IMG/VR virus record: IMGVR_UViG_3300017922_000003 | Coordinates: 1 to 64,000 of that record | Origin: a virus | Strand: one strand, 5' to 3' | DNA length: 64,000 nt | Shown: in pieces, positions 9,848 through 63,987 of the stretch | Layout of the letters: each line of letters begins with the position of its first letter | Position numbering within the stretch: the stretch's first letter is position 1 | Notes under the pieces: model-generated | What the model saw: only the letters and a program-made list of their open reading frames with translations | Databases searched by the model: none | Told to the model about the DNA's origin: nothing | Position numbers and translations under genes: made by a program

Positions 9848-10205
9848 GATGTCACCTCCTTTCAAATAATGTCTCCTACACCGGCTGAGAAGAAGGGCAC
9901 GGGCAAAAATCTCAGCCCCTCTACCACCCGGATATAGGAGCATAGTTCTCCCTCCCTGTAATCCTCTCTTTTTACATTCAGTACCCCCCTCTGTTTTCTT
10001 CACTTTTCCCAGTACTCCCTCCCTGTATACGAAGTAGATTCGTATCTTCCACGAATAATCCTCTCTTTTTATCTAACTGTTGTTATATCTACATATGAGA
10101 CGTGAACACCTTATAACGACCTTGAAAAAGCCGTTGCCTGAAGGGTAACGACCTTGAGTTTCAGGTCGTGCTGTAGGTAAGGAAAGAAAGGTGGAGGTGC
10201 GACTA
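9848..10205. promoter_or_regulatory. Divergent control region between leftward and rightward genes
   Basis: Leftward genes start at 9847 and rightward genes at 10206. The leftward leader carries a stem GGCTGAG/CTCAGCC within a larger fold (about 9880-9945). Two direct repeats of CTCCCTCCCTGTA followed by ATCCTCTCTTTTTA lie at 9948-9974 and 10015-10071; the second is split by a 30-nt insert with the palindrome TACGAA/TTCGTA. The rightward promoter is at 10081. The rightward leader holds two inverted iteron cores (10114-10124 and 10146-10156), and the second forms a hairpin ACGACCT/AGGTCGT (10148-10169). Confidence 0.6.
10081..10099 (+). promoter_or_regulatory. Late-type promoter 1 (TGTTATATCTA-N4-TGAG)
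   Basis: TGTTATATCTA at 10081-10091, CATA, then TGAG at 10096-10099 and CGTGAAC. It lies 107 nt upstream of the first rightward gene and should drive the terminase block up to 17716. It matches the motif found before most rightward blocks. Confidence 0.75.
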
Positions 10206-10952
10206 GTGTCCCAAAACAATGGACGAGAGTCTAAAAATAAAGAAATAGATCTCCTGTCTGAAGTGAGTAATGCGTTAGAGCGCAAGGAGAGGCAGAAGCG
10301 TAGTTTACGTGAGAAGTTAGCGTTGGCACGTGTTGGTAGTGGGGCAAACACGGGGCCGTTAGAGATACGCGATGTTGATCCATACATTGATTTAAGTGGT
10401 GTGGATGATGAGACGAGGGAGAAGATACAGCAGAGGCTCAGGTTACTTAGCAGGGGAATTAGTTTTACTGGTGTATTGAATTGCAAGGGGCACAAGGCGT
10501 GTCCTTACCGGGACGGTTGTCCATTTATTGGGTTGGAGCCCAAGGGGGAGAAGTGTCCTATGGAGATGGCGTCGCTGGATCGTATGTTTGACGCTTATTT
10601 TCAGAGTCTTGGTATAGATGGTCAGGATGCTGCGGAGATAACGCAGTTACAGTCCCTATTGGATTTAGAGCTTAAGATCATGCGTGCGAATGCGCAATTG
10701 AGTGAAGATGGGATGGAGCAGAGCACGTACAAGCAGGGACAGGACGGTTCGACGTTTGTTGAGAAAAAACAGCATCATTTGCTGAAGACGCTTGAGACCT
10801 TGCACAATCAGAAGATGAAGATGCTTAAGAGTTTCAAAGCCACGCGGGAAAGTCGCGATGTGGAAAGGGATGTCTTTGATTTATCCAACAGAATAAACGA
10901 GCTACACAAAGCCCAGGGGCAGAAATCTCGGGGTCAAGGGAGTGATAAATAA
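10206..10952 (+). CDS. Putative terminase small subunit / Cys-cluster protein
   Basis: About 248 residues from GTG 10206, 7 nt after GGAGGTG. An in-frame GTG at 10191 would include the binding site and is rejected. The N-terminal half is charged and helical. A cluster of Cys residues from residue 93 (C-x6-C-x5-C, then GEKCPME) could bind a metal. The C-terminal half is helical and Gln-rich with a basic tail. It is first in the operon that contains the large terminase, where small terminases usually lie; that placement is the main reason for the name. Confidence 0.5.
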   Translation: MSQNNGRESKNKEIDLLSEVSNALERKERQKRSLREKLALARVGSGANTGPLEIRDVDPYIDLSGVDDETREKIQQRLRLLSRGISFTGVLNCKGHKACPYRDGCPFIGLEPKGEKCPMEMASLDRMFDAYFQSLGIDGQDAAEITQLQSLLDLELKIMRANAQLSEDGMEQSTYKQGQDGSTFVEKKQHHLLKTLETLHNQKMKMLKSFKATRESRDVERDVFDLSNRINELHKAQGQKSRGQGSDK

Positions 10953-11839
10953 TGGTTGCTGGTAAAAGTGTTCTTGATTATTTAATTGGTGCTATTGGCG
11001 GAATGGGTAAGAGATGGAAGAAGGCAGCTGGTGCTGAAGCTGTTGAAAACGCCAAGGGTGCTTTAAATAAGGTGTTTGGAGCAATAGGTTTTCGTCGAGC
11101 CGGCAGACAGGCTGTGGTTGATGCAGGACAGGCTGCTGGTGGTGGCAGTAAGTTGTTTAGAGGTATCTTTGGTTTTGCTGGTGGTGACGCTGGTTTTGAA
11201 GCTAAGAACACCATCGCTGCTGTTTCCCAGCCATTAGCCGAATATGCTAGTGATGTTCAATACTATAGAACCTTGAAAGGTAAAGCTGCTGGAATAACAA
11301 AAAAGCTTAGCAAAGATACTCCTGAGAAAGTTAAAGCAATAGCCAAAAAGGTTGAAAATGCCTATGCAAATGGCGATGTCGATGCTATAAAGGCAGCCAA
11401 CAAAGATGCTTTTGATTACATAAAAACTTTGAAAAACGCAGACTACAGAGAACAAGCCGCAAAACAATTTAGAGAGACAGGTCTTGGTGAATTACTCAAT
11501 GCAAGAGGAATGTCACGATACAACTCTTCGTATGATCGTCTCAAAGGTAGTTTGAATCAAGTTGGGGCAGAAATTGCAGATGAAAAAGCTTTAACGAACT
11601 GGGCTGCTAATGCCTCTGCTTCTGATCTAAAAGCCTTGCGTGCTATTAAACCAGACACTGGTTTGAGTTTCTGGGGAAAATCAGCTGTAGCTGGAATAAC
11701 AAGAGGCGGTCTTGTTGGAGGGGTTGCAAGGGCTTCGCTACCATTCGTGGGAATAGGCGGTACCATATATGCTTTCAAGAAACCTTTCGAAATGATTGAT
11801 GTTGCTACCGAAGAGATAAAGAGAAACGGAGGGCTATAA
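10952..11839 (+). CDS. Ala/Gly-rich hydrophobic putative virion protein
   Basis: A 295-residue protein whose ATG overlaps the previous stop by 1 nt (TAATG). The N terminus has a glycine-rich amphipathic segment (YLIGAIGGMGKRW) and the centre is a long Lys/Ala-rich helix. Near the C terminus a hydrophobic stretch (SAVAGITRGGLVGGVARASL) looks membrane-active. Compositionally it resembles the next gene, and both resemble ejection or inner-capsid proteins. No family recognised. Placement before the large terminase is unusual for ejection proteins. Confidence 0.6.
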   Translation: MVAGKSVLDYLIGAIGGMGKRWKKAAGAEAVENAKGALNKVFGAIGFRRAGRQAVVDAGQAAGGGSKLFRGIFGFAGGDAGFEAKNTIAAVSQPLAEYASDVQYYRTLKGKAAGITKKLSKDTPEKVKAIAKKVENAYANGDVDAIKAANKDAFDYIKTLKNADYREQAAKQFRETGLGELLNARGMSRYNSSYDRLKGSLNQVGAEIADEKALTNWAANASASDLKALRAIKPDTGLSFWGKSAVAGITRGGLVGGVARASLPFVGIGGTIYAFKKPFEMIDVATEEIKRNGGL

Positions 11840-11840
11840 C

Positions 11841-12752
11841 ATGCCTTCTGCTGCATATTTTCTCAACAATGACGTAACAGCACAGTCTCAAAGTGATGCT
11901 CTTGCTGCTACCGGTGGAGCATTAAAAGCCGGGCTGGGACTTGGTGGAGCGTGGTTTGTTGAAGAAATGCTTGCTGAACGCATGGAGCTGGCTCCGTTCC
12001 AAAAAACCGGGAGAATTACCAGTGCTATTAGCGAAAGGATATTTGGTTTAAAGGGAGTAGGATTGCATCAACTTTCAGATGTTAACTATCCACTTGCATT
12101 TAAAGAAAAAGCCAATGTATTGTTGTGGCGTAACAGGTACGCCCGTAAAGCTGCTAAGTACGTAAATGCTTCGATCGAAGGGAAAGCTGCCGGTGAGTTC
12201 TTGAGTTCTGCGGTTAAGGCTGGAAATAAGACTATTTCACTCAAAACACCCACAACCCTATTTGGTTTTAAAACTGAAAATCAGGGGTTGCTCTTCAATA
12301 TGAATTTAACTGGCGGAGGAAAGAAATTTTCTAAAGGATTTATAGGTCAGGCGAGAGGCAAGATAGCCAGTCTTATTAAGAGTAAAAATTATGCAGCTGC
12401 AAAGAAACTCGGTGCCTATGCCACTTCTGTACTTGGTCAGTCTATAGGTTCTTACATAATTGCCTTTGATGTCGCCAGCACGGTGGCTATGGGAATCAAT
12501 CTGGCACGTGGAGCATTTAACTATTTTGAAGGTTTGGGACAGGCTGCCAAAGCTTATGCGCGCGAGTCCATAGGATCCGAAAACTCTGTTGCTGTTCCGG
12601 ACTTTGTTGATTCTCAGGCCAATCAGGCTATGAGACAGGCGAATGTGCAGGAACTTATGCAGTCCCGACAGCAGACGGTTATGCAAAACACGAACGAAGC
12701 TTCCATGCTGAAAAACAACCCATACAAATTTTACAGATATATTGGAGGTTGA
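11841..12752 (+). CDS. Ala/Gly-rich hydrophobic putative virion protein
   Basis: A 303-residue protein starting 2 nt after the previous stop. It has hydrophobic Gly/Ala segments near residues 25-40 (GGALKAGLGLGGAWFVEEML) and 195-220 (QSIGSYIIAFDVASTVAMGI), with basic linkers between. The C-terminal 70 residues are polar and Gln/Asn/Met-rich. It has the same general character as the preceding gene but no clear residue-by-residue homology by eye. Likely a structural or DNA-ejection protein; the function is inferred from composition only. Confidence 0.6.
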   Translation: MPSAAYFLNNDVTAQSQSDALAATGGALKAGLGLGGAWFVEEMLAERMELAPFQKTGRITSAISERIFGLKGVGLHQLSDVNYPLAFKEKANVLLWRNRYARKAAKYVNASIEGKAAGEFLSSAVKAGNKTISLKTPTTLFGFKTENQGLLFNMNLTGGGKKFSKGFIGQARGKIASLIKSKNYAAAKKLGAYATSVLGQSIGSYIIAFDVASTVAMGINLARGAFNYFEGLGQAAKAYARESIGSENSVAVPDFVDSQANQAMRQANVQELMQSRQQTVMQNTNEASMLKNNPYKFYRYIGG

Positions 12753-12756
12753 TTTC

Positions 12757-14466
12757 TTGTCAACCAAAACACTTAATATGCAACAGCAATACCAGAAGAT
12801 GGCTCAGGAGTATCTTGGTGTGGATTATGAGCTTGAGCAAATGTGTGTTGACTGTGTTCTCAGAAGACTTGAGAACGATATAAACGAGCACCGAATACCT
12901 TGTAAACCTCTTGAAAAAGGTACGATAGATGATCAGATACCTCAAACTAAAGATGATTATTTACTTAAATTAGCGGAAGATCCCGCATTCTTTTCAAAAG
13001 AGATGTTTGAAATGGAATTGCGAGGATTTCAAAAAGAGATATTGTACTGCACGTCCCGTAGGAAAGTGCTCAGGATTTGTCGTAGAGCCGGTAAGACTGA
13101 AGCGATGGCTATAGCTGCTATCAAGCACGCCATTACACATAAAGATCAGGAAATACTGGTCGCTGCTCCCATGGAATCACAGGTTAAAAATCTGTTTGAA
13201 AAGATGAACAAGCATCTTATCAATTCAGAAGCGTTGCGTAATTCCGTGATTAAACAATCCACAACCAAAACACGGCTCTATCGTTCAAAACCTTTTGAAC
13301 TTGCGTTCAACAACGGGTCTAAGATAGAAGGTTTTACTACTGGGTCTCAGGGTGCCAAGAATATTCGTGGTCAGGACGGTTCTATGATTGTGCTGGACGA
13401 GGTTGACTATATGAACAGACCGGATATAGAAGCCATACTCGCTATCTTAGCAACCAGTCCAAAAACCACGCTTATAGCAAGTTCCACACCCTCGGGCAGA
13501 CGAGATTACTTCTATCAGTGGTGTCATTCCTCTTCATTTAAAGAAATACATTATTCCTATCAGGATATAGAAATATACGATCCCAAACAGGACAGAGAGT
13601 TTAAAGAACAGTACGATAAAGAGGCGTACGAGCGTGAAATCCTTGCCATGTTTACCCTTATGGAATCGGGCGTTTACAGGCCTGACAAGATCCAGCAGAG
13701 TATAGAAAATTACAGTTTTGATGACCCATACAACGTACCTGAAGGGCTATACACCATGGGGGTTGACTGGAATGAAACAGCTGCTGGTGTACAGATTGTA
13801 GTGGTGCGTTACGAGCCTGATAAAGGCAAGTTTAGAACGTGCAATGTGTTGGAAATACCTCCATCTCAATTCACTCAGATAGAGGCTGTGGAGAAGATTA
13901 TCGACCTCAACACCATGTATCAGCCGCGCAAGATAATGCTGGACGCCGGTTATGGTAATACCCAGTTCCAGATGCTTCAAAAACATGCTGAACAGCACCC
14001 GGAATCAAAACTGGAAGAAAGGCTGGAGATGATACCGTTCCAGTCCAAGGTACATCTTGTAGATCCCGCGACAGGCAACAAGGTTAGCAGAAGCATAAAG
14101 ACCCACATGGTTTCTATAAGTGCGCGTTATGTGGAAAACAATCGTATTATCATGCCAGCTTCAGAAGATTATCCTGGCAAGCTGGTAGGTATTATGCGTA
14201 ATTACGCCATTGAAAAGATAGGCAGCAACGGTGAGCCTCAATATTCCAAAGGAAAGGTTCACATATTGGAAGCATGGATACTCGCCATGTACGGCATGTG
14301 GAAGATAAGCGAAGATGGCGGTGGATTCAATATGAGAAATCCAATCATTGTTAAAACAGAACGAGACAAGAACAGCAAACAAAGCGTTAGACGTAGTTTC
14401 AGACGCTCTCGTGGTGCTCTGGACTTATCGCGTGGAGCGCTTGGCGGTAGGAGGCGTTGGACTTGA
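12757..14466 (+). CDS. terL: Terminase large subunit
   Basis: A 569-residue packaging motor from TTG 12757, 7 nt after GGAGGT; in-frame TTG 12742 precedes the site. ATPase domain: deviant Walker A C-R-R-A-G-K113-T, Walker B IVLD214-E215, and coupling motif SSTPSG (242-247). The C-terminal RNase H-like nuclease has acidic residues at MGVD337W and IMLD396AGYG, and a later Glu in HILEAW. Order and spacing fit a full-length headful or cos terminase. The C-terminal tail is very basic (RRSFRRSRG). It overlaps the next gene by 4 nt. It translocates genome DNA into the prohead through the portal encoded at 17775. Confidence 0.95.
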   Translation: MSTKTLNMQQQYQKMAQEYLGVDYELEQMCVDCVLRRLENDINEHRIPCKPLEKGTIDDQIPQTKDDYLLKLAEDPAFFSKEMFEMELRGFQKEILYCTSRRKVLRICRRAGKTEAMAIAAIKHAITHKDQEILVAAPMESQVKNLFEKMNKHLINSEALRNSVIKQSTTKTRLYRSKPFELAFNNGSKIEGFTTGSQGAKNIRGQDGSMIVLDEVDYMNRPDIEAILAILATSPKTTLIASSTPSGRRDYFYQWCHSSSFKEIHYSYQDIEIYDPKQDREFKEQYDKEAYEREILAMFTLMESGVYRPDKIQQSIENYSFDDPYNVPEGLYTMGVDWNETAAGVQIVVVRYEPDKGKFRTCNVLEIPPSQFTQIEAVEKIIDLNTMYQPRKIMLDAGYGNTQFQMLQKHAEQHPESKLEERLEMIPFQSKVHLVDPATGNKVSRSIKTHMVSISARYVENNRIIMPASEDYPGKLVGIMRNYAIEKIGSNGEPQYSKGKVHILEAWILAMYGMWKISEDGGGFNMRNPIIVKTERDKNSKQSVRRSFRRSRGALDLSRGALGGRRRWT

Positions 14467-17745: not shown

Positions 17746-17764
17746 TGTTATATCTACCTTCGGG
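17746..17764 (+). promoter_or_regulatory. Late-type promoter 2 (TGTTATATCTA)
   Basis: TGTTATATCTA at 17746-17756, then CCT-TCGGGTGGTGAAC, which resembles the TGAG-x2-GTGAA tail of other copies. It lies 19 nt upstream of the portal ATG (17775), so the messenger leader would be very short. It heads the portal-protease-decoration-capsid block. Confidence 0.75.
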
Positions 17765-17774
17765 TGGTGAACGC

Positions 17775-19250: not shown

Positions 19251-20767
19251 TGGACAAAGGAAGTTTTGTAACCAACGCCACGTTTATACCGGATAACAAA
19301 AACGAAGACTCACAGAACCTGAAAACGTGGATAGTAGCCACTCATTCAGATCTTGAGATAAACAATAGAATTTATCCCGGATATGTGATGAAAAGAGAAG
19401 TAAAAACTTGGACATCGCCCTATCGCAAACCTGTTTTGGCTCATCACGACGATAATGCTGATGCCATAGGTAGGGTTTTAGAGGCTTATTACTTTGACAG
19501 TGCCGACAAGATGTCTGCTGAAAGACTTATAAATAAGGAAATAGATGTTCCTGCAGGTGCTTCTGGATTCATTCTTCTCAGAGCAAATATAAGCGATCCC
19601 AGGGCAATAGACAAGATTCTTGACGATCGTTATATGACGGTGAGTATAGGTTTCGCATCACACCGTGCCGTTTGTTCTATATGTGGCAACAACTGGGCAG
19701 AAAAACCATGTAAGCACATACCCGGAAGAAAGTACGATGACGAAAAGGCTCTCTTGATCATGGAGAGTATGGATTTCAAAGAAATCAGTTTTGTTAACAA
19801 TCCCGCTGATGTACATGCGCAGGTTGTTATCAAAGAAAAGGAGGACGCTTCAATGGAGATAGACGCAAACAAAGACAACGTAACTGTAAGTGGCGACGAA
19901 ATGGAAAAACACGCAGTGAAGATTCCCAAAGCAAAGAAATTAAAGGATATGACATTTGAGGAATTCTATCAGGTTGTTTTACAGGAAGACACGGAGGAAG
20001 AAAACGAGAAACAAGCTGCATATATAGATGAAGAACAAAACAATGAGGAGGACAGCGAAATGGTTTCACAAGAGAAGTTTGAGACTTTACAGAAACGTTT
20101 CGATGAGCTCTACGATTTCGTTAAAGGCCTACTTATAGACAAGATCATAGAGGCAAAGAAAGCTATGGGTGTTAAGGGCTACGATGACGAAGAGTTTGTT
20201 GAAAAAAAGCGTGAGATGTACCTAAAAAGAGATCTTCAGATTCTTACCACCATCGTTGACGAATTGAACGAAACGATGTTTGAAGAAGAATGTGAAGAAT
20301 GCGAGAGCGACGAGAAAACAGAAGAAGATGCACAGGAAGAAACAAATGAGGAGACAACAACAGATGAGGAAGAAACTACTGAAGCAGACGGCGAAAATGA
20401 AGAAAAAGATGCCGAGGAAACAGACAACGAAGAAGAGGTAGAAACAGATACTGAAGAATCAGAAGAAACAGATGAGGATGCAGAAGAAACGGAAACAGAC
20501 GAAGAAGAAACAGATAACACCGATGAAGATACGGATAAGAATGAAGATTCAGATGAAGAAAATGTTTCCGAAGATGACAAAAACGAAGATAGTGAAGAAA
20601 CCGAAACTGAGACTGACAGCGAAGAAGAGGCGACAAACGAAGATAAAGAAGACGTTAAAAACGGGGGTATCACTCGTGAAGACCCACCTAGTGTTATGTC
20701 TAATGGTGCCACCAGTAAGAAAGTCGAAAATTCACAAGATGTCGCAAGACGAAAACTAGGTATTTAA
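19247..20767 (+). CDS. Prohead protease fused to acidic scaffold
   Basis: A 506-residue protein. Residues 1-200 resemble S78-type prohead proteases: AHHDD (H66/H67) followed by IGRV, and MTVS133IGF as the nucleophile strand, then a Cys/His cluster (C-S-I-C, KPCKHIPG) that may bind zinc, and SFVNNPAD. Residues 205-330 include a coiled coil. Residues 345-480 are almost only Glu/Asp/Thr/Asn, typical of scaffold that is digested during maturation. Two well-placed internal start sites (ATG 19853 and ATG 20060) may give free scaffold. The start ATG 19247 overlaps the portal stop. Confidence 0.8.
   Translation: MMDKGSFVTNATFIPDNKNEDSQNLKTWIVATHSDLEINNRIYPGYVMKREVKTWTSPYRKPVLAHHDDNADAIGRVLEAYYFDSADKMSAERLINKEIDVPAGASGFILLRANISDPRAIDKILDDRYMTVSIGFASHRAVCSICGNNWAEKPCKHIPGRKYDDEKALLIMESMDFKEISFVNNPADVHAQVVIKEKEDASMEIDANKDNVTVSGDEMEKHAVKIPKAKKLKDMTFEEFYQVVLQEDTEEENEKQAAYIDEEQNNEEDSEMVSQEKFETLQKRFDELYDFVKGLLIDKIIEAKKAMGVKGYDDEEFVEKKREMYLKRDLQILTTIVDELNETMFEEECEECESDEKTEEDAQEETNEETTTDEEETTEADGENEEKDAEETDNEEEVETDTEESEETDEDAEETETDEEETDNTDEDTDKNEDSDEENVSEDDKNEDSEETETETDSEEEATNEDKEDVKNGGITREDPPSVMSNGATSKKVENSQDVARRKLGI
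19853..20767 (+). CDS. Possible nested scaffold protein from internal start
   Basis: Within the protease gene, AAGGAGG at 19837-19843 stands 9 nt before in-frame ATG 19853, just after the protease domain ends. Translation from here would give a 304-residue, highly acidic scaffold without the protease. This mirrors the nested scaffold start known inside some phage protease genes. A second site, GAGGAGG before ATG 20060, could make a shorter form. This is an inference from start-site quality and domain boundary. Confidence 0.45.
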   Translation: MEIDANKDNVTVSGDEMEKHAVKIPKAKKLKDMTFEEFYQVVLQEDTEEENEKQAAYIDEEQNNEEDSEMVSQEKFETLQKRFDELYDFVKGLLIDKIIEAKKAMGVKGYDDEEFVEKKREMYLKRDLQILTTIVDELNETMFEEECEECESDEKTEEDAQEETNEETTTDEEETTEADGENEEKDAEETDNEEEVETDTEESEETDEDAEETETDEEETDNTDEDTDKNEDSDEENVSEDDKNEDSEETETETDSEEEATNEDKEDVKNGGITREDPPSVMSNGATSKKVENSQDVARRKLGI

Positions 20768-23226: not shown

Positions 23227-23301
23227 GCCAGTGTAGCTCAACGGAAGAGCAGCTGATTTGTAATCAGCAGGTTGGGGGTTCAAATCCCTTCGCTGGCCCC
23301 A
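23227..23301 (+). tRNA. tRNA-Thr (anticodon TGT), CCA encoded
   Basis: Cloverleaf by eye: acceptor GCCAGTG/CGCTGGC (one G-T pair), anticodon stem GCTGA/TCAGC with loop TTTGTAA (anticodon 23259-23261, TGT, reads ACA), T stem GGGGG/CCCTT with loop TTCAAAT, and CCA at 23299-23301. ACA is very frequent in the capsid, sheath and fibre genes, so the tRNA probably supplements the host pool. It sits between two terminators inside the late gene block. Confidence 0.93.
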
Positions 23302-23409: not shown

Positions 23410-23427
23410 TGTTATTTCTATTTAGGG
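23410..23427 (+). promoter_or_regulatory. Late-type promoter 3 (TGTTATTTCTA)
   Basis: An exact TGTTATTTCTA at 23410-23420 followed by TTT-AGGGAGTGAGAAT; the TGAG box is replaced by AGGG. It lies 17 nt upstream of the next ATG and heads the connector/sheath block. Confidence 0.8.
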
Positions 23428-23437
23428 AGTGAGAATA

Positions 23438-24601: not shown

Positions 24602-25005
24602 ACGAACCAATTTTAAAAAGGTTAAAAAAAGCAATTGAGGACTATGGTAACGACTACATATTGCGTCACCGAACTGACACCGGTCCTAGAGATATTATTT
24701 TCAGGGGTATAAACGATCTAATTACTCCACAACGTTCACTTGCGGATGCATTGAAATATTTCAATCTGGGTTCTAACAAAGACGTTTCCATACGTTTTTA
24801 TATTGACCCATACAGCTTAGATGCTGCTCCACAAGAAAAAGACATAATCTTCGATGTTAACAGAGGCCCGGATGGAATAACTGTGCCTATACAGGTTAGA
24901 GAGGCTTACAGAATAAATCACGTGGGGTATGTGGAAATCGATAATACCCTGTTATTTCTAGAACTGGTCTGTAACAGAGAGGAGATGGGATCTTGGAACA
25001 GGTAA
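24598..25005 (+). CDS. Putative head-tail completion protein
   Basis: A 135-residue protein overlapping the previous gene by 4 nt (ATGA). N-terminal helix, then strands including VSIRFYIDPYSLD and GYVEIDNTLLFLEL. Size and place (after adaptor, before tail terminator) fit the neck protein series of contractile phages. An exact copy of the 11-nt late promoter core lies inside it at 24950-24960. No specific family recognised. Confidence 0.55.
   Translation: MNEPILKRLKKAIEDYGNDYILRHRTDTGPRDIIFRGINDLITPQRSLADALKYFNLGSNKDVSIRFYIDPYSLDAAPQEKDIIFDVNRGPDGITVPIQVREAYRINHVGYVEIDNTLLFLELVCNREEMGSWNR
24950..24960 (+). promoter_or_regulatory. Intragenic exact match to the late promoter core
   Basis: TGTTATTTCTA inside the 24598-25005 gene, followed by GAA-CTGG instead of N3-TGAG. 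It lies 33 nt before the TTG start of the next gene, a distance like that of genuine copies. It may be a secondary promoter for the tail terminator and sheath, or a chance match. Confidence 0.4.
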
Positions 25006-27199: not shown

Positions 27200-27212
27200 G
27201 GAGTGATTGCGA

Positions 27213-27833
27213 ATGCCTATAACTGACAATTGGAAAGATTCTTCGACCATCACAGGTAGTGATATTTATGTTGCTGTTGGAGACGTTGTAATAGGAACCG
27301 GTACCGGTTTGGTTTTGGATGTAACAAGAGATAAGAGACCGGCTTACACATTTGGTTCTGTTGATCCAAGAGCCATAGGTAGAGGCGTACGACAGATCAC
27401 AGGTATGATGAATGCGGTTAACATAAAAACCAGTGTAGTCTTTGAAATAATGTCTCAGACAAATGAAACGATATCCATGCTTGTAGAAAAAGATGAAGTT
27501 GAAGAAGGATCTACAGAAAAACTTAGCAGAGGATTTCAAGATTACAAACTTGATGGTAGTTGGCAACCTAGAGAGTATGGAGGCCACTGGCTTTCTGCAG
27601 ATGTAAAACCCATCTTATTGGACGAACTGCCGCCTGTTAATTTAGTTCTCATAGGAATGAATGAGGCAGGATTAAGTACCAAGATGGCAGTTAACGGTGT
27701 TGAATTTACATCCGTACAGTGGGCCATAACAATGGATGATGTAGCCAGCGCAGAAAGAGTTTCATTCATCGCTAGATCTTACCAACCTCTAGCACTTACA
27801 GACGGAGAAGATTACGGACCAGATTACTTATAA
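27213..27833 (+). CDS. Tail tube protein (paralogue A)
   Basis: A 206-residue protein from ATG 27213, 9 nt after AAGGAG; TTG 27207 in the same frame is too close. It begins with SGSD/TGSD-like ITGSDIYVAVGDVVIG and has YTFGSVDPRAIGRGVRQITG near residue 40, the signature shared with 28227-28814. The mid part is polar and the end is a strand pair. Place directly after the sheath makes it the main inner-tube candidate. It is followed by a strong terminator. Confidence 0.8.
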   Translation: MPITDNWKDSSTITGSDIYVAVGDVVIGTGTGLVLDVTRDKRPAYTFGSVDPRAIGRGVRQITGMMNAVNIKTSVVFEIMSQTNETISMLVEKDEVEEGSTEKLSRGFQDYKLDGSWQPREYGGHWLSADVKPILLDELPPVNLVLIGMNEAGLSTKMAVNGVEFTSVQWAITMDDVASAERVSFIARSYQPLALTDGEDYGPDYL

Positions 27834-27852: not shown

Positions 27853-27875
27853 GAGCCCCTTAGGGGGCTCTTTTT
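27853..27875 (+). terminator. Intrinsic terminator after first tube gene
   Basis: GAGCCCC-TTAG-GGGGCTC followed by TTTTT. Promoter 4 begins 7 nt later, so two transcription units meet here. Confidence 0.85.
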
Positions 27876-27881: not shown

Positions 27882-27899
27882 TGTTATTTCTACTCTGAG
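27882..27899 (+). promoter_or_regulatory. Late-type promoter 4 (TGTTATTTCTA-N3-TGAG)
   Basis: An exact core at 27882-27892, CTC, TGAG at 27896-27899 followed by GTGAAT. The GTG start of the next gene is 11 nt beyond, so the TGAGGTG segment also serves as the ribosome binding site. Confidence 0.85.
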
Positions 27900-27909: not shown

Positions 27910-28221
27910 GTGTCCAGAATGCTCGAATATTATCACCGGGTTGAAGCTATCCTGCATGTAATCGTTCATATGGGAGATGATGGCGAGATTCTTTGTCATC
28001 AATCTTTACTGTTTACCCAGATGAGGTTTTTCGATGACGGTTGCATTGTGTTTGGCGATGATGAATTTATCACTCACAAAAATGTTTTGACCGAATCGGA
28101 AAAGAAAATCGACAGAGACTTGCATCCCAAACTCATTTTAAAGAAACCACATATGAAACTTATGATCGAGTTTCTGGATAAAAAATCATTTGGCATCCTC
28201 AATAAATGGATTAAGGAGTGA
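27910..28221 (+). CDS. Hypothetical protein in the tube cluster
   Basis: A 103-residue protein starting at GTG 27910 behind GAGGTGAA. It is His-, Asp- and Phe-rich in the first half (HVIVHMGDDGEI) and Lys-rich at the end. No tube signature, signal peptide or known motif. It is first in the unit that contains three further tube-like genes and the chaperone pair, so a tail-assembly role is likely, without further detail. Confidence 0.65.
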   Translation: MSRMLEYYHRVEAILHVIVHMGDDGEILCHQSLLFTQMRFFDDGCIVFGDDEFITHKNVLTESEKKIDRDLHPKLILKKPHMKLMIEFLDKKSFGILNKWIKE

Positions 28222-28226
28222 ATCTA

Positions 28227-28814
28227 ATGCCCGTAACTGGTTCGGACGTAATTATATCGATAGATCAGACCATGATAGCAACGGCAACAAGTCTTAGTTA
28301 TTCAGTTTCCAGAAGAAAATTGCCTGTCTATACATTTGGTAGTGTTGATCCCAAAGCTTTTGGCAGGGGGGTAAGGCTAATAAACGGAGTCTTAGATAAT
28401 GTAGTAATAAGTGGAAAGAGTATCCAAAGGGTTCTCGATGAGAAGATGAAGGAAATGGGACCCATCTTTATTTCAGATAAATCAGATCTCGTTCTTTACG
28501 AACAGGCACTTGCCAATATGTTTGGTGAGGATTTTCCTTTCAAGAAAGAAGAGATTCAGGATAATGAAGGCAATACATTTGCTATTAAAATGCCTTCTGC
28601 GGTCCATCTTGACCAACTGCTTCCTGTTGACATCATTATGTTAGGCGCCAGTGAAAAAGGAAAGTTCGTAAAGACGGTTATCAACGGCGCTGAATTTACC
28701 ACACACAGAACGACTATCTCGATGGATCAAACGACAATGGTAGAACGAGTTGAATTCATAGCACAATCAAACAAGCCCATGAGCGAACTTGATGTGGTAA
28801 TGCCCAACGAATAA
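28227..28814 (+). CDS. Tail tube-like protein (paralogue B)
   Basis: A 195-residue protein from ATG 28227, 8 nt after AAGGAG. It is clearly homologous to the 27213 protein: both start with P-V/I-T then GSD, contain YTFGSVDP-x-A-x-GRGVR-x-I-x-G, an LLPVDI/ELPPVNL strand, NGAEFT/NGVEFT, and end with ERVEFIA/ERVSFIA. It may form the tube tip, initiator or terminator ring, or a second tube layer. Being separated from paralogue A by a terminator and promoter allows different expression levels. Confidence 0.8.
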   Translation: MPVTGSDVIISIDQTMIATATSLSYSVSRRKLPVYTFGSVDPKAFGRGVRLINGVLDNVVISGKSIQRVLDEKMKEMGPIFISDKSDLVLYEQALANMFGEDFPFKKEEIQDNEGNTFAIKMPSAVHLDQLLPVDIIMLGASEKGKFVKTVINGAEFTTHRTTISMDQTTMVERVEFIAQSNKPMSELDVVMPNE

Positions 28815-31441: not shown

Positions 31442-31460
31442 TGTTATATTTAATATTGAG
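31442..31460 (+). promoter_or_regulatory. Late-type promoter variant 5 (TGTTATATTTA-N4-TGAG)
   Basis: TGTTATATTTA at 31442-31452, ATAT, TGAG at 31457-31460, then AACAATAAATTGGAGG. One core mismatch (C to T). It lies 25 nt upstream of the 25-codon frame at 31485 and 120 nt before a strong terminator, forming a tiny unit. Confidence 0.6.
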
Positions 31461-31484: not shown

Positions 31485-31562
31485 ATGATGGATGACTTCA
31501 CTATGCTCGAACTCGCTAAAGCAAAAAACAAACAATTGCTGAAAGAATTAGGTATAGAGTGA
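31485..31562 (+). CDS. 25-residue peptide
   Basis: A short frame, ATG 31485 (a second ATG follows at once), with TGGAGGTG 7 nt upstream, one of the best binding sites in the window. The product begins MMDDFTMLELAK and ends with a Leu/Lys/Glu-rich amphipathic helix (KQLLKELGIE). It has its own promoter variant and terminator. It could be a small functional peptide or a leader for regulation. No homologue recognised. Confidence 0.55.
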   Translation: MMDDFTMLELAKAKNKQLLKELGIE

Positions 31563-31673: not shown

Positions 31674-31691
31674 TGTTATTTCTACCCTGAG
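31674..31691 (+). promoter_or_regulatory. Late-type promoter 6 (TGTTATTTCTA-N3-TGAG)
   Basis: An exact core at 31674-31684, CCC, TGAG at 31688-31691, then ATGAAATC and an AGGAGG site before ATG 31717. It drives the pair of secreted HExxH proteins. Confidence 0.85.
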
Positions 31692-32654: not shown

Positions 32655-32748
32655 GTACATTTAGTCTACCAGAGGTAAAAGTCCTCTTAGAACGCATCCT
32701 CGCAAGGATATGAGGGTATTCTGGGAACATATACGAGAAGTTTTGCAA

Positions 32749-32780
32749 CCCGTCGTTTAGCAGCGGCGGGTTTTGTTTTG
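32749..32780 (+). terminator. Intrinsic terminator before the giant virion genes
   Basis: CCCGTCG paired with CGGCGGG across TTTAGCAG (one T-G pair), followed by TTTTGTTTTG. Confidence 0.8.
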
Positions 32781-32783: not shown

Positions 32784-32801
32784 AGTTATTTCTAAATCGA
32801 G
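32784..32801 (+). promoter_or_regulatory. Late-type promoter 7 (AGTTATTTCTA-N3-CGAG)
   Basis: GTTATTTCTA at 32785-32794, AAT, CGAG at 32798-32801 and GCGATGGC. Two deviations from consensus (first T to A, TGAG to CGAG). Nine nt downstream is ATG 32810; the CGAGG segment doubles as ribosome binding site. Confidence 0.75.
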
Positions 32802-44281: not shown

Positions 44282-44299
44282 TGTTATTTCTACACTGAG
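44282..44299 (+). promoter_or_regulatory. Late-type promoter 8 (TGTTATTTCTA-N3-TGAG)
   Basis: An exact core at 44282-44292, CAC, TGAG at 44296-44299, then AGGCGGTGG. The GTG start of the hub gene is only 5 nt beyond TGAG, giving an extremely short leader if transcription begins near TGAG. Confidence 0.85.
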
Positions 44300-56594: not shown

Positions 56595-56612
56595 TGTTAT
56601 TTCTAAATTGAG
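56595..56612 (+). promoter_or_regulatory. Late-type promoter 9 (TGTTATTTCTA-N3-TGAG)
   Basis: An exact core at 56595-56605, AAT, TGAG at 56609-56612, then AGTTATC and, 39 nt later, ATG 56651 with AGGAGGCG. A short hairpin AAGAGG-CGCCT-CCTCTT (56575-56591) sits directly upstream. It drives the fibre block. Confidence 0.85.
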
Positions 56613-57828: not shown

Positions 57829-57837
57829 TGACATAAC

Positions 57838-57870
57838 GGGGGCTGCAACGCCCCCATTCTGCCTTTCTTT
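57838..57870 (+). terminator. Intrinsic terminator before the fibre gene
   Basis: GGGGGC-TGCAAC-GCCCCC followed by ATTCTGCCTTTCTTTCTTT. The T tract is broken, so read-through to the fibre gene is probable; it may lower fibre expression relative to upstream genes. Confidence 0.6.
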
Positions 57871-57885
57871 CTTTGAGGTGATTTA

Positions 57886-59778
57886 ATGCCAAGACTCAAT
57901 TCAGCCAATAATGCTAATTCTACGTTAGCTGCTGGAATATCTGATGTTGATACTACGCTTACAATACAGGACGCTTCCGAATTTCCGGCAGCGCCTTTTA
58001 GATGTACTATATATGAAAGATATCCTGAAAATGGAGAGATAGTTGAAGTTTCAGCCGTTGATGGAACTACATTCACTGTAACACGCGGAATGGAAGACAC
58101 AACAGCTCAATCGTGGGATGCTGGTATGAAGGTCGGACTGTTTGGTACTGCAGGACAGTATGATGAACTTATCAGCGACTCTGACGTAGACAGTTCTAAT
58201 ACAGCGGACAAGATAGTTAAAAGAGACTCCAGCGGAAACTTCAGCGCAGGAACAATAACAGCTGCACTGAACGGAAATGCCTCAACGGCTTCAGCTCTAG
58301 AAACTTCAAGAACAATCGAGTTGACAGGAGACGTTTCTGGTTCTGCTTCGTTTGATGGTAGCAGCAACGCATCTATTTCAGCGACAGTAGCTAACAATTC
58401 ACATACACATACAAGTTCCAATATTTCCGATGCCACCGATTCCAACACAGCCAATATGATTGTCAAGAGAGATTCAAGCGGTGGATTTAGCGCTGGAGCA
58501 ATAACAATGGCCAGTGGTAATGTCGTGAACGATCTTGTTATAGATGGCAATTTAACAGTTAATGGTACTGAAACTATCGTTAATGCAGAAACATTAGAAA
58601 TTGCTGACAATGTAATGGTTTTGAATTCAAATTTTACTTCCGGAACTCCTACCGAACATGCCGGAATAGAAGTTTCAAGAGGAGACTCTTCAAATGTCCT
58701 ATTGAGATGGAATGAAACAAGCAATTACTGGGAAATGACGGAAGACGGTACAAATTATTACAGGTTGCTCACCACAGCTGATGAGGGCACAGGTAATGGT
58801 TTAGATGCAGATACACTAGATGGTAACGAAGCTACTCATTTTGCAACAGCGTCAAACCTTTCCAGTCATACTGGAGACACAAGCAATCCTCACAGTGTTA
58901 CATCAACTCAAGCCAGCTACGATAACACAACTTCTGGATTAACTGCCACTAACGCTCAGACAGCCATAGATGAAGTAGAAGGGCGTCTTGATACAGCTGA
59001 AAGTAATATATCATCACATATAGGTACAACAACCGGTAACCCTCATAACGTTACCAAGAGCGACGTTGGATTGGGCAATGTTCCAAATACCGATATTGCT
59101 TATTCAAGCACAATAGCTGCCGATGATTTCACACAGGCAGAGGTAGATAACCTTAGGGCAGCCAAATTGGATGATGGTACTACTCCTTGGACATCTAAAG
59201 CAGAAAGCACAGATAGTAGATTTCCAACAAGTGATGAGAAAGACGCTTTAGCTGGAACTGGAACACCGAGTAGTACAAATGTCTATGTAACTAATGATGA
59301 TAGTAGGTTAAGTGATGCCAGAACACCAACAAGCCATGATAATACACATCATTCTGAAACATATATAACTGAAGTATCAGACGACACTACTCCACAACTT
59401 GGAGGAAACTTAGACGCAAATGACAAAATAATAGGTAAACCAGTTATAAAAGACTATGGAGAGGAAATTAAAGCTCATGGTACAACTGGCGGTTCAATAA
59501 CCTGTGATATGCAGGATGGAAATATTCATACCATAACGCTTAATGCTGATACAACATTTACATTCTCCAACCCACCCGCAAGTGGAACAGCAGGTTCGTT
59601 CACACTTATGCTAAATCAAGACAGTACAGCGAGAACTGTTACATTTCCAGCAAGCGTTAAATGGGAAGGCGGGTCAGTCCCAGATTTATCAACTGTTTCA
59701 ATTCTTTATATCCTAACGTTTATAACAACTGACGGTGGAACAACTTGGTATGGCTGGCTTTCAGGAAGTGATTTCTAA
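57886..59778 (+). CDS. Tail fibre protein
   Basis: A 630-residue protein, ATG 57886 behind GAGGTGA. The N-terminal 90 residues (a beta domain with GEIVEVSAVDGTTFTVTRG) attach to the tail. Two copies of SNTAD/ANK/MIVKRDSSG-x-FSAGTIT follow, then NLTVNGTETIVNAETLEIAD, as in phage fibre shafts. Repeats then include SSHTGDTSNPHSV and NPHNVTKSDVGLGNVPN, and the C-terminal 100-residue beta domain is Thr/Gly-rich. Trimeric shaft by analogy. A host-receptor role is likely. Confidence 0.85.
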   Translation: MPRLNSANNANSTLAAGISDVDTTLTIQDASEFPAAPFRCTIYERYPENGEIVEVSAVDGTTFTVTRGMEDTTAQSWDAGMKVGLFGTAGQYDELISDSDVDSSNTADKIVKRDSSGNFSAGTITAALNGNASTASALETSRTIELTGDVSGSASFDGSSNASISATVANNSHTHTSSNISDATDSNTANMIVKRDSSGGFSAGAITMASGNVVNDLVIDGNLTVNGTETIVNAETLEIADNVMVLNSNFTSGTPTEHAGIEVSRGDSSNVLLRWNETSNYWEMTEDGTNYYRLLTTADEGTGNGLDADTLDGNEATHFATASNLSSHTGDTSNPHSVTSTQASYDNTTSGLTATNAQTAIDEVEGRLDTAESNISSHIGTTTGNPHNVTKSDVGLGNVPNTDIAYSSTIAADDFTQAEVDNLRAAKLDDGTTPWTSKAESTDSRFPTSDEKDALAGTGTPSSTNVYVTNDDSRLSDARTPTSHDNTHHSETYITEVSDDTTPQLGGNLDANDKIIGKPVIKDYGEEIKAHGTTGGSITCDMQDGNIHTITLNADTTFTFSNPPASGTAGSFTLMLNQDSTARTVTFPASVKWEGGSVPDLSTVSILYILTFITTDGGTTWYGWLSGSDF

Positions 59779-60218
59779 TGATAGCCGATAGATTGAGAAT
59801 GAAGAAAAAACCTTCTTCATATATTTATTATTATGGTGAAGGCAATGATAATTTAGATGCTCCTGATGGTTGTACTAAAGAAGAAGATTATATTTATATG
59901 TATGCAAGAGCTTCGGCTTGGGTAGTTACAGCAGCACAATACTCTCTTGAAAATTATAATAGTGTAGAAGCAGTTATGATTGGAAATATTAGGGCTGAAT
60001 GTACTAATTGGATTAAAGTAGCCATAAGTACTTATAGTAATATGTCAACCCTTGATAGTACGTTTGACGCAGAAGAAAGAATAGATAATGTTGTTAATCA
60101 ACTTTATACTATAACTTTGGACATATCTTCATTCAATAGCTCAAAGTATATTTATGTACTTACACGATCATCATACCCCTACTCTGCCAGTAAATTATAC
60201 TCAGTTAGATTAATATAA
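59778..60218 (+). CDS. Hypothetical fibre-tip or accessory protein
   Basis: A 146-residue protein sharing 1 nt with the fibre stop. MIADRLRMKKKPSS opens a short basic segment, then a Tyr/Ser/Asn-rich, strand-dominated body with few charges and an unusual run of Tyr (YIYYYGEGNDN). Codons are A+T-richer than upstream genes, as in recently acquired fibre cassettes. Could be a receptor-binding tip or fibre chaperone. A remnant of a similar start lies at 60238. Confidence 0.6.
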   Translation: MIADRLRMKKKPSSYIYYYGEGNDNLDAPDGCTKEEDYIYMYARASAWVVTAAQYSLENYNSVEAVMIGNIRAECTNWIKVAISTYSNMSTLDSTFDAEERIDNVVNQLYTITLDISSFNSSKYIYVLTRSSYPYSASKLYSVRLI

Positions 60219-60237
60219 AGAATTGGAAGGTGTAATT

Positions 60238-60276
60238 ATGATAGCAAATAGATTGATAATTTTGAAATTAGAGTAA
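60238..60276 (+). pseudogene. 12-codon remnant resembling the start of the preceding gene
   Basis: A binding site GGAAGG stands before ATG 60238; the frame reads MIANRL and six more residues, then stops at 60276. The preceding gene starts MIADRL with the same TTATGATAGC-type context. This looks like the surviving 5' end of a duplicated or swapped gene. It might instead be a translated tiny peptide. Confidence 0.5.
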
Positions 60277-60292
60277 ACGGAGAGTGATATAG

Positions 60293-60967
60293 ATGTATGT
60301 ATTAGTTGAGAATAATGAAGTTGTAAAGAAAGGATTACCCAAAACAGGACAACTAAGCGATGGTAGATGGGTTTCCAATTATCATTTGTTGCCTGAAGAA
60401 ACTTTACTTGCTGAAGGCTGGTTACCTCTGATAGATAATATTCCTGCTTATAACAGCGAAACTCATAGACCTGTTAGAACTGGTTTTGATATTTACCCAG
60501 ATAGAGTTGAAGCCGTTTATACACTTGAGGAAATATTGCCACCACAGATAACAGAAGAAGAATTACAGGATAGAGCGGTAAAAAAGATTATCAAAAAGAA
60601 TGTAAATGACCAGATAGCAAATGGTGAAATTTCAGGAAGCGAAGTTTATGAATATGAATCCTTCATAGATGAATGGAAAGCTGGAATTGCTTATTCAGCA
60701 GGTAACATAGTGAAGTATAATGAAAAGCTTTACAAGGTTTTACAAGCTCACACTTCACAATCAGACTGGACTCCAGAAAGAGCAGTTAGCTTATTTGCTG
60801 TTTATACAACTGGAATATCAGACTGGGTTCAACCAACAGGAGCTCATGATTGTTACAATGCTGGTGATATGGTTTCTTACAAAGGTAAAACATATAAGTC
60901 TTTAGTAGATGGTAATGTCCGGAATCCAGAAGAGTATGAAGGTAGATTGTGGGAACTACAAGAATAA
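60293..60967 (+). CDS. Putative fibre protein with two chitin-binding-type modules
   Basis: A 224-residue protein, ATG 60293 behind GGAGAG. Residues 1-110 are a charged domain. Residues about 125-165 (WKAGIAYSAGNIVKYNEKLY followed by KVLQAHTSQSDWTPE) and 176-224 (WVQPTGAHDCYNAGDMVSYK, GKTYKSLVDGN, then W) match the carbohydrate-binding module 5/12 (chitinase-type) pattern twice: Trp, Y-x-x-G-D/N-x-V, Y-x-x-K/G-x-x-Y and closing Trp. This suggests binding of surface polysaccharide. Confidence 0.75.
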   Translation: MYVLVENNEVVKKGLPKTGQLSDGRWVSNYHLLPEETLLAEGWLPLIDNIPAYNSETHRPVRTGFDIYPDRVEAVYTLEEILPPQITEEELQDRAVKKIIKKNVNDQIANGEISGSEVYEYESFIDEWKAGIAYSAGNIVKYNEKLYKVLQAHTSQSDWTPERAVSLFAVYTTGISDWVQPTGAHDCYNAGDMVSYKGKTYKSLVDGNVRNPEEYEGRLWELQE

Positions 60968-61118
60968 TGAATATAACAATTGACTAATATGTAATAAATT
61001 AGTGAACACGCAATACAATGCGTGGTTACAACCATATAAGGGGTTAGGTGGATGTTCACTAATAGACATCAAGTAAATACAACTAACGAAAACTAAAAAC
61101 ACAAACGAGGTCTTATAA
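60968..61118 (+). ncRNA. Possible structured RNA or leader before the repeat fibre gene
   Basis: No protein frame. A perfect 11-bp inverted repeat ATTAGTGAACA (60998-61008)/TGTTCACTAAT (61053-61063) encloses a second stem CACGCA/TGCGTG (61007-61024, taking 2 bp from the first) and a GGTT/AACC mini-hairpin. The layout is a branched fold of about 66 nt, 55 nt before GTG 61119. It is not a tRNA: loop sizes and conserved positions do not fit. It could be a regulatory leader or a processing site. Confidence 0.4.
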
Positions 61119-63968
61119 GTGTTTACCAATAGAGCTAATTTTAACCAAATAGAATTTAACGGACTAGCTCTTCAAGTAGAATCAGCTGGTTCTGAAACAA
61201 ATATCAGCGCCTCTGTAGAAATATCTGGGTACAAAGGTATTTCACTTGGTGCTCAGACAACAGTTTCTGTTGGTACCGAAAGCTCTGTTGGTAAATCGAC
61301 AAGTCTCTATTCCGAAACATCTGTAAGCATATCCACACAGCATGAATTTAGTATTCTAATTCGTGCGCCTCCTGCAGAATCTACAATAATAGCAGGAACG
61401 GAAAGTGATTTTTATAAATCAACAGATATTGGCATTGATGCAAATGTTAATATCAATACAGAATATTCCTTCCAAAAAGAAATATCAGACAGCTCAGAAA
61501 CACAAGTAAATGCTTCTGTTGAAAGTGGTGTAGAAAAATCTACACAGCTTAATGTTGAAACAAGTGTACTAATTGCTCCTGAAATTGATGGTTTTAAGAA
61601 AATATCAGATAGCAATGAAACATCAGTTATAATAGATACAGAATCAGACATTCAAAAATCATCTTCAAACAGTCAGGAAACACATACTTACATCAGTACC
61701 GAAGCTAATAGTTATAAAATAATATCATTGGCTAATGAAACAGAAATAACAGCAGCTACTGAACGTTCTGGTTTAAAAACTACTTCACTTGGAAAAGACA
61801 CCAATGTAGTAACTTCAACCGAGCATGATTTTTATAAAACAGCAACTGTTGGTAATGAAGCTAATGTAATTACCATAACAGAGATAGATGGTTACAAGAG
61901 TGTATCTGCTGGTGCTGAAACAAGTATTACAACAAGTACACAAACAGCATATACAAAGCTGGAAAAACGTGGTGCAGATACAAGTGTAATTATAAGCACA
62001 GAGCAAGCTGCAACCAAATCAGTTTCTGTAGGTGCTGAGACTTCAGTAACAGCAAACAGCGAATCATCTGTCAAGAAATTTACAGCTGACAGTATTGAAA
62101 CTGAAACCCTTGCAACGACAGAAATTAATGGCTATAAATCAATTTCAAATAACTCCGAAACAAATATATCAATATCTACCGAAGCAGGACTAATAAAATC
62201 TATTGAAAATAGTAATGAAGCCTCTATTAACGTCGCTTCAGAATGGGACGGTTACAAAAGTAATTTTATTGGTTCTGAAACAACTGTAGACGTACAAGCT
62301 TCAGGAACACCCAAAAAATCCGTGTCGGATTTTGCAGAAACCGATATCTCTGTCAATACCGAATCTGAATATTACACTGGCGGAACAATTGTTTTTGTTT
62401 CTACAAAAGGTTACGGTGAAAAACAAGTATCGCTTGGTTCTGACACCGATGTTTATGCAACAACAGAAATGTCTGGTTATAAAACCGCTTTTGCTGGTGC
62501 TGAAACACAGGTTGCTACCTCTACTGAAAGCTCTGTTAAAAAATATGTATCTAACGGTTCAGACACACAAATAAATGTTTCCACAGAATCACTATATACA
62601 CGTTCTGCACAAACGGCAGTGGTAATTTCTACTGAATATGCTGCTACAAAGTATGTTTCTGCTGGTGCTGAAACTTCTGTCATAACAAGTACAGAAAGCT
62701 CTGTACAAAAAGAAATTACAGATAGCAGTGAAACAAGTGTCCTTGTAAACACAGAAAAAAACGGGCAAAAGAAGATAATCAATTTTAATGAAACCGATAT
62801 ATTTGTAAGTTCCGAAACCGCTGAATATAAAAATCCAACTGTAGGTAAATCAGCTGTTGTAACCATTGATACATCTGGAAACGGGTCAAAACAAACGGAC
62901 AACGATTCCGAAACAACTGTATACGTAACACCAGAAATATTTGGACAAAAAATAATAGTCGATGAATCAGAGACAACAGTGAATATTTCTTCGACCTCAG
63001 ATGTATTTAAGACAGTTTCTCAAAGTGCACAGACGGAAATTGTTGTTTCTAGCGAATCAGAATATTCAGAATCTTCAAGCCGTGCTGGCGAAGCTACTGT
63101 TAACACAACCACAGACGCAGATGGTTATAAACATATTTCTTTAGGCTCAGAAACAAATGTTGGAGTATCCACCACAAGCAGTGTAAGTAAAGATGTAGAA
63201 CTCGGCAATACTACCAATGTAAATGCAACTTGTGAAACAAATGGTTACAAACAAATATCGAACCAATCTGAAACAAACATTGTTACATCTACTGAAGGAA
63301 ACGGTTTTAAAGCAACATCTTTGGCATTAGAAACAACTGTAAATGCTTCTACACAAATTGAAGCTATCAAACAAATTCCTGACAGCGCAACAACAACAGT
63401 GAATATATCAGCAAGTTCAGGATTATTTACAAGTAAATTTATAACATCTTCGCTGGATGCCATGGGAGTAATAATAACTCCGACCACAATAAGAAAGCGA
63501 ATAAGGGTATCCACACTAAAAAAACAGTCACTGACAGGAACAATCGAAGTGAATTCTATGGCTACAAACTCAATAAGTTCTACACTTCAGGCGCAGGCAT
63601 ACGAACCACCATGCATAACAAGCACCATATCTGCGGTAGCAGTGCCTGAAAATGAACACAAAATACTCTTTGGAGGTGAAAGCGGTAGCTATCTCGGCAG
63701 TATTGACGTTAGACAGCCGTCATCAAACAGCTATTCATACACGCTGGTTGATGGAGAAACAGACGCTGTTATCGGTCAATACAATGGCATGAGATGGGAT
63801 ATCGCGCGAGCTACCAACTCCAGAGGAGTAATATTAAAGGCCTCGACTAAAGCTGACAAAGACAAGCTTGTAAATATGCTTGACAATCCAGATTCACCTC
63901 TATACATGTTAAAGTCCGCAGGAAAACCCATTGTGATTGTTTTTAACAACACAGCATACATTTATTGA
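61119..63968 (+). CDS. Repeat-based tail fibre / beta-solenoid protein
   Basis: A 949-residue protein from GTG 61119 behind GAGG. About residues 27-765 are roughly 37 repeats of 20 residues with the pattern ETxVxxSTExxGYKxISxGA (a 60-bp unit, imperfect at DNA level). Such a 20-residue alternating Thr/Ser/Glu pattern predicts a long beta-solenoid or trimeric fibre shaft. A few units are interrupted (for example IRAPPAESTII near residue 85). The C-terminal 165 residues are non-repetitive and globular. No catalytic motif. Likely a long adhesin or side fibre. Confidence 0.8.
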   Translation: MFTNRANFNQIEFNGLALQVESAGSETNISASVEISGYKGISLGAQTTVSVGTESSVGKSTSLYSETSVSISTQHEFSILIRAPPAESTIIAGTESDFYKSTDIGIDANVNINTEYSFQKEISDSSETQVNASVESGVEKSTQLNVETSVLIAPEIDGFKKISDSNETSVIIDTESDIQKSSSNSQETHTYISTEANSYKIISLANETEITAATERSGLKTTSLGKDTNVVTSTEHDFYKTATVGNEANVITITEIDGYKSVSAGAETSITTSTQTAYTKLEKRGADTSVIISTEQAATKSVSVGAETSVTANSESSVKKFTADSIETETLATTEINGYKSISNNSETNISISTEAGLIKSIENSNEASINVASEWDGYKSNFIGSETTVDVQASGTPKKSVSDFAETDISVNTESEYYTGGTIVFVSTKGYGEKQVSLGSDTDVYATTEMSGYKTAFAGAETQVATSTESSVKKYVSNGSDTQINVSTESLYTRSAQTAVVISTEYAATKYVSAGAETSVITSTESSVQKEITDSSETSVLVNTEKNGQKKIINFNETDIFVSSETAEYKNPTVGKSAVVTIDTSGNGSKQTDNDSETTVYVTPEIFGQKIIVDESETTVNISSTSDVFKTVSQSAQTEIVVSSESEYSESSSRAGEATVNTTTDADGYKHISLGSETNVGVSTTSSVSKDVELGNTTNVNATCETNGYKQISNQSETNIVTSTEGNGFKATSLALETTVNASTQIEAIKQIPDSATTTVNISASSGLFTSKFITSSLDAMGVIITPTTIRKRIRVSTLKKQSLTGTIEVNSMATNSISSTLQAQAYEPPCITSTISAVAVPENEHKILFGGESGSYLGSIDVRQPSSNSYSYTLVDGETDAVIGQYNGMRWDIARATNSRGVILKASTKADKDKLVNMLDNPDSPLYMLKSAGKPIVIVFNNTAYIY

Positions 63969-63987
63969 TGTTATTTCTAACAGTGAG
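63969..63987 (+). promoter_or_regulatory. Late-type promoter 10 (TGTTATTTCTA-N4-TGAG)
   Basis: An exact core begins on the base after the TGA of the fibre gene (63969-63979), ACAG, TGAG at 63984-63987, then CGATGAAC. ATG at 63990 is probably the start of the next gene, cut by the window edge after 11 nt. Confidence 0.8.

What the first reader, a model, noticed from the sequence alone, without database searches (positions are those of the whole stretch)
10081..63987. Phage-specific late promoter family TGTTATTTCTA-N3/4-TGAG
Exact or near-exact copies at 10081, 17746, 23410, 27882, 31442, 31674, 32784, 44282, 56595 and 63969, plus one intragenic at 24950. Almost all are intergenic, on the coding strand, 10-110 nt before the first gene of a block, and often just after a terminator. 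TGAG is commonly followed by GTGAA-like sequence. There is no -35 partner at 17 nt. An exact 11-mer is expected about 0.01 times in 54 kb by chance. No copy heads a leftward gene.
Basis: partly seen in the sequence, partly recalled or inferred. Interest (0 to 1): 0.88.

Follow-up and report, generated by a model that had tools for sequence, protein, structure and literature searches.

The report
Phage-specific late gene promoter family
A short DNA signal repeated ahead of the structural-gene blocks of an uncultured tailed phage is almost certainly the phage's own 'start late transcription here' promoter, a familiar kind of element with a new sequence; which phage factor reads it is unknown.

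Summary
The motif is real. TGTTATTTCTA has 7 exact copies, all on the + strand, and is the commonest 11-mer in the record. Ten intergenic sites fit the consensus [TA]GTTAT[TA]T[CT]TA, plus an exact copy 32 nt before a gene start. Intergenic DNA is only 3% of the rightward block. No copy lies in the leftward block. There is no conserved -35 element. TGAG follows at 3-4 nt in 7 of 10 sites.

New evidence: a relative found in IMG/VR (L096; 51% terminase and 45% portal identity) carries the motif at the two orthologous intergenic sites it covers, before the portal gene and after the capsid-gene terminator, although the flanking intergenic DNA is unrelated. More distant relatives (MTATph1, KLEB27-3, ME3 and about 50 contigs) lack it.

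The geometry (8-bp TATTTCTA, then about 5 nt to a purine, no -35) is that of T4 late promoters. Two relatives encode a divergent sigma-like protein in a module missing from this fragment, so host RNA polymerase with a phage sigma is favoured. The rival is an 870-aa ORF with a beta-prime-like signature (SGR...RxPT...DxDxD), a candidate single-chain RNA polymerase not confirmed by profile or fold. A separate minus-strand motif family marks the leftward genes.

The parts
10081..10099 (+). late promoter 1: TGTTATATCTA N4 TGAG, 99 nt before the first gene (10191) of the terminase operon
17746..17756 (+). late promoter 2: TGTTATATCTA (no TGAG), just before the portal gene; the portal start is most likely ATG 17775, not 17742
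   Evidence: ortholog L096:5337 TGTTATTTTTA-T-TGAG at the same place
20692..20702 (+). possible weak site TGTTATGTCTA in the 3' end of the protease gene, 82 nt before 20785
   Evidence: L096:8054 has an exact copy at the homologous codon position in the same phase, so conservation may be at protein level
23410..23420 (+). late promoter 3: TGTTATTTCTA, after the major capsid gene and tRNA-Thr, before the gene at 23429/23438
   Evidence: ortholog L096:10261 directly after a terminator
24950..24960 (+). exact TGTTATTTCTA in the last 56 nt of a gene, 32 nt before the next start (24993)
27882..27899 (+). late promoter 4: TGTTATTTCTA N3 TGAG, about 12 nt after terminator 27853-27870
31442..31460 (+). 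late promoter 5: TGTTATATTTA N4 TGAG, before a 25-codon ORF (31485-31562) that is followed by a strong terminator
31674..31691 (+). late promoter 6: TGTTATTTCTA N3 TGAG, about 60 nt after that terminator
32784..32801 (+). late promoter 7: AGTTATTTCTA N3 CGAG, about 12 nt after terminator 32747-32772, before the 1902-aa gene
44282..44299 (+). late promoter 8: TGTTATTTCTA N3 TGAG, before the 2279-aa gene
56595..56612 (+). late promoter 9: TGTTATTTCTA N3 TGAG, before the tail-fibre region
63969..63987 (+). late promoter 10: TGTTATTTCTA N4 TGAG, before a gene that starts at about 64015
5938..8550 (-). 870-aa ORF; candidate single-chain two-barrel RNA polymerase (SGR 717, RIPT 783, DDDDD about 812); unconfirmed
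   Evidence: motif counts; no profile, sequence or fold match

Best explanation
The motif is the phage's own late promoter. An 11-bp AT-rich element of the -10 type, TGTTAT(T/A)TCTA, with no -35 partner, is recognised under a phage-encoded specificity factor, and RNA starts about 5-7 nt downstream on the A or G of TGAG. It heads the separate rightward operons for packaging, head, tail and fibre proteins, several of them directly after terminators. Shown: sequence, statistics, placement, conservation at orthologous sites. Inferred: promoter function (about 0.87), late timing, start site. For the reader of the motif I favour a divergent phage sigma factor working with host core RNA polymerase (about 0.45), encoded in the part of the genome missing from this 65-kb fragment, over a phage RNA polymerase (about 0.3). 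The confidence given here is for 'phage-specific late promoter read under phage-encoded specificity', sigma or polymerase.
For: Enrichment and strand bias. Placement: 10 of 12 sites in the 3% that is noncoding, 8-99 nt before gene starts, or about 32 nt before a small ORF for 31442. No conserved -35. Terminators immediately upstream of several. Relative L096 keeps the motif at the orthologous portal and post-capsid sites while flanks are unrelated. Geometry equals that of T4 late promoters, TATAAATA at -13 to -6 read by sigma gp55 (PMC1524935). MTATph1, the closest named relative, encodes a sigma region 4 protein just after RuvC (PF08281, 29.6 bits, cut-off 25.7), and KLEB27-3 has an annotated sigma factor close to its RuvC gene.
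Against: No transcript data. No sigma factor in this record, and the module where relatives keep it is not in the fragment. MTATph1 and KLEB27-3, which have the sigma-like gene, show no comparable motif. One lineage with only two members supports the conservation.
Confidence: 0.8

Rival explanations
1. The motif is a promoter read directly by a phage-encoded single-chain two-barrel RNA polymerase, the 870-aa product of 5938-8550(-), as proposed for gp99 of Bacillus phage 0305phi8-36 and as YonO does for SPbeta late genes. (A special case of 'phage-encoded specificity'; it competes with the sigma version.)
For: The ORF has, in order and near beta-prime spacing, SGR, RxPT and DxDxD; this composite occurs in 0 of 1826 other phage ORFs and 2 of 20000 shuffles. 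Gp99 of 0305phi8-36, a known distant member of the phage group, is YonO-like and its authors proposed a 21-bp phage-specific promoter for it (PMC2147016, PMC7824862). YonO itself gave no Pfam match even at E 10, so a negative family search means little.
Against: No family, profile, PDB-sequence or fold match; the predicted models are of too low confidence to use. The pattern was chosen after seeing the sequence. No homologue in relatives with the same late genes. The 0305phi8-36 motif lies in non-structural genes. Variable spacing to TGAG is unlike rigid single-unit promoters.
Confidence: 0.3
2. The motif is read by the unmodified host holoenzyme, perhaps with a phage activator.
For: TGTTAT resembles an extended -10 (TGnTAT).
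Against: Under that alignment the last base of the -10 hexamer, normally T, is C in 10 of 12 sites; no -35; sigma-70-like sites are no commoner than in shuffled sequence.
Confidence: 0.1
3. The motif acts in RNA or as an operator: an mRNA processing, stability or translation signal at operon starts.
For: Always on the sense strand, 8-99 nt before start codons; TGAG often overlaps the Shine-Dalgarno sequence.
Against: Sites follow strong terminators, where a new promoter is needed and none of another kind is seen; no common fold around the motif.
Confidence: 0.08

Closest known systems
T4 late promoters (TATAAATA, sigma gp55 with gp33 and gp45)
   Same: Near-invariant 8-bp -10-type element, no -35, predicted start about 6 nt downstream, found only before structural genes; TATTTCTA matches TATAAATA at 5 of 8 positions.
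   Different: Conservation extends 3 bp upstream (TGT) and to TGAG downstream; gp55/gp33 homologues not found in this fragment.
21-bp promoter motif of Bacillus phage 0305phi8-36 (putative target of RNA polymerase gp99)
   Same: Phage-specific repeated motif in the same broad myovirus group.
   Different: Reported in the non-structural right arm as a middle promoter; its letters are only in a figure and that genome was not in the collections, so the sequences were not compared.
YonO (SPbeta) late promoter
   Same: Late genes read by a phage-encoded system.
   Different: One start site upstream of yonK; its promoter sequence is undetermined (PMC5467207).
Early promoters of phiKZ/AR9-type phages (about 10-nt AT-rich element centred near -10)
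   Same: Similar size and position of the conserved element.
   Different: Those are early promoters read by a virion multisubunit polymerase; AR9 late promoters are AACA-N6-T(A/G) (PMC7598289).

Membership tests
Phage-specific late promoter (general kind) | Motif over-represented and confined to the strand and upstream regions of late genes | tested here: met
Phage-specific late promoter (general kind) | Position kept at orthologous genes in a relative | tested here: met
   L096:5337 and L096:10261
Phage-specific late promoter (general kind) | RNA 5' ends at the motif, late in infection | not testable with these tools
   no transcript data
T4-type (gp55) late promoter | 8-bp -10-only element at -13 to -6 without -35 | tested here: inconclusive
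   lack of -35 and compatible spacing shown (consensus from PMC1524935), but the start site is inferred
T4-type (gp55) late promoter | Consensus TATAAATA | tested here: not met
   TATTTCTA, 5 of 8 positions
T4-type (gp55) late promoter | Phage sigma gp55 and co-activator gp33 encoded | tested here: inconclusive
   no sigma region 4 in the fragment; relatives carry a sigma-like gene in the missing module; gp33 not tested
YonO/gp99-type single-chain RNA polymerase (870-aa ORF) | DxDxD metal-binding signature with RxP upstream | tested here: met
   weak, also occurs by chance
YonO/gp99-type single-chain RNA polymerase (870-aa ORF) | Detectable profile homology or two-barrel fold | tested here: inconclusive
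   no match with YonO or beta-prime profiles; models too poor
Host sigma-70 promoter | -35 element and TATAAT-like hexamer ending in T | tested here: not met

The most novel reading that the evidence does not exclude
The motif is the promoter of a new, highly diverged single-chain two-barrel RNA polymerase (the 870-aa ORF), which would give a polymerase of this class a matched late promoter family of at least ten sites.
Probability: 0.25. Interest if true: 0.75.

Novelty: new member of a known kind. Interest (0 to 1): 0.45.

Why it matters
It gives an operon map for an uncultured, divergent myovirus group and a compact, testable promoter. If the 870-aa neighbour proves to be the enzyme, it would supply the promoter sequence still undetermined for the YonO class in the sources read here. 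If a phage sigma reads it, it extends the T4-late style of promoter to a phage group related to 0305phi8-36.

Tried and rejected
PWM and k-mer searches in MTATph1, KLEB27-3, ME3 and about 50 IMG/VR records found no comparable motif. The IMG/VR scan for TGTTATTTCTA-N3-TGAG gave 76 single matches, consistent with chance. An MTATph1 candidate (TTGGTTATATTTTAT) was rejected: equal on both strands and often inside genes. Attempts to find homologues of the 870-aa ORF failed, as did profile alignment with 54 YonO and 81 beta-prime sequences, AlphaFold without homologues (pLDDT 35 and 47) and Foldseek on the second model (nothing below E 1). The only portal match beyond L096 was too remote to use. The last scan, for the leftward motif, found no second genome with several copies.

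Full report
Setting. The window is nearly all of a 65,339-base linear IMG/VR record. Positions 10 kb to the end read rightward: terminase, portal, protease-like gene, major capsid protein, tail sheath, three genes of 1902, 1914 and 2279 codons, baseplate J-like protein, tail fibres. Genes below 10 kb read leftward. The nearest named phages are Moorella phage MTATph1 (176,639 bases; terminase 31% identical), Bacillus phage vB_BauM_KLEB27-3 and Acinetobacter phage ME3, whose record cites homologies to Bacillus phage 0305phi8-36. These genomes are 177-235 kb, so the record is probably a fragment without the replication module.

The observation. Every coordinate holds. Seven exact 11-mers, all on the + strand, make TGTTATTTCTA the commonest 11-mer of the record; the relaxed consensus has 11 + and 1 - matches against 0.45 expected. 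Ten of twelve sites fall in the 3% noncoding part. Upstream of the motif only a G at -2 and a weak signal at -3 are enriched; there is no -35. TGAG follows at 3 or 4 nt in seven of the ten intergenic sites. Where a separate Shine-Dalgarno sequence exists further down (31442, 31674, 56595, 63969), TGAG is still there, so it is not merely a ribosome-binding site.

Comparative evidence. A terminase alignment found contig L096 (10.4 kb; 51% best-segment identity) among IMG/VR contigs. It has three motif copies, all on the coding strand, against 0.28 expected. One is just before the portal gene (TGTTATTTTTA-T-TGAG), the counterpart of 17746; one sits directly after the terminator behind the capsid gene, the counterpart of 23410. 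The intergenic flanks do not otherwise align well. This is strong evidence for selection on the motif. The portal alignment also shows that the portal starts after the motif, at about 17775. The third copy (L096:8054) matches 20692 but is in the same codon phase at the homologous C-terminal stretch of the protease gene, so there the conservation may be in the protein. More distant relatives lack the motif: it is specific to this lineage.

Mechanism. A strand-specific, operon-heading element that follows terminators is most simply a promoter. Its geometry is that of T4 late promoters: TATAAATA at -13 to -6, no -35, read by the phage sigma gp55 (PMC1524935). Laid on TATTTCTA, the start falls on the A (N3) or G (N4) of TGAG; this is inference. 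Two relatives encode a sigma-like protein in their replication module, near RuvC: MTATph1 CDS0074 (PF08281 above cut-off) and KLEB27-3 gp089 (annotated as sigma; Pfam support weak). The fragment has no such gene, as expected if that module is missing. I therefore favour host core polymerase with a phage sigma, at about 0.45.

The rival polymerase. The 870-aa leftward ORF 5938-8550 has SGR, RxPT and DxDxD at near beta-prime spacing; none of 1826 other phage ORFs and 2 of 20000 shuffles have the set. Some jumbo phages, 0305phi8-36 among them, carry YonO-like single-chain polymerases (PMC7824862), and for 0305phi8-36 a 21-bp promoter was proposed for gp99 (PMC2147016). But all direct tests failed or were uninformative, and the pattern was chosen after inspection. 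I hold the ORF to be a polymerase with about even odds, and to be the reader of this motif with 0.25-0.3.

Two motif classes. On the minus strand, ACCCAGCT(C/T)ATGAA occurs six times with at most one mismatch in its first 13 letters, all upstream of or between leftward genes; none on the + strand; 0.3 expected. One copy follows a terminator directly. This fits a second, leftward (early or middle) class and explains why no late motif heads a leftward gene.

Verdict. A genuine promoter-like family, of a well-known kind, with a new sequence; its reader is an open and testable question.

Noticed in passing
2510, 3357, 4047, 5197, 5640, 5759 (minus strand, 5' ends): A second motif family, (C)ACCCAGCT(C/T)ATGAA, six copies on the minus strand only, between leftward genes; the copy at 3357 directly follows terminator 3384-3366. 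Probably a leftward (early or middle) promoter or operator class.
   Followed up: partly
5938-8550, minus strand: 870-aa ORF without any database match but with an SGR...RxPT...DxDxD order resembling the catalytic barrel of RNA polymerase beta-prime.
   Followed up: partly
about 8617 and 8840, minus strand: GGCAG(A/G)TATGAGCGGGT occurs twice upstream of the 870-aa ORF.
   Followed up: no
31485-31562, plus strand: A 25-codon ORF (MMDDFTMLELAKAKNKQLLKELGIE) with its own late motif, Shine-Dalgarno sequence and strong terminator: a possible micro-gene.
   Followed up: no
23227-23301: tRNA-Thr (TGT) between the capsid-gene terminator and the late promoter at 23410.
   Followed up: no
27207-27833 and 28218-28814: Both genes match the same stretches of contig L040, so they are probably paralogues, perhaps tail-tube proteins.
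   Followed up: no
4230-4408, minus strand: Direct repeats around TTAACGACCTTGAA in a long noncoding stretch of the leftward block.
   Followed up: no
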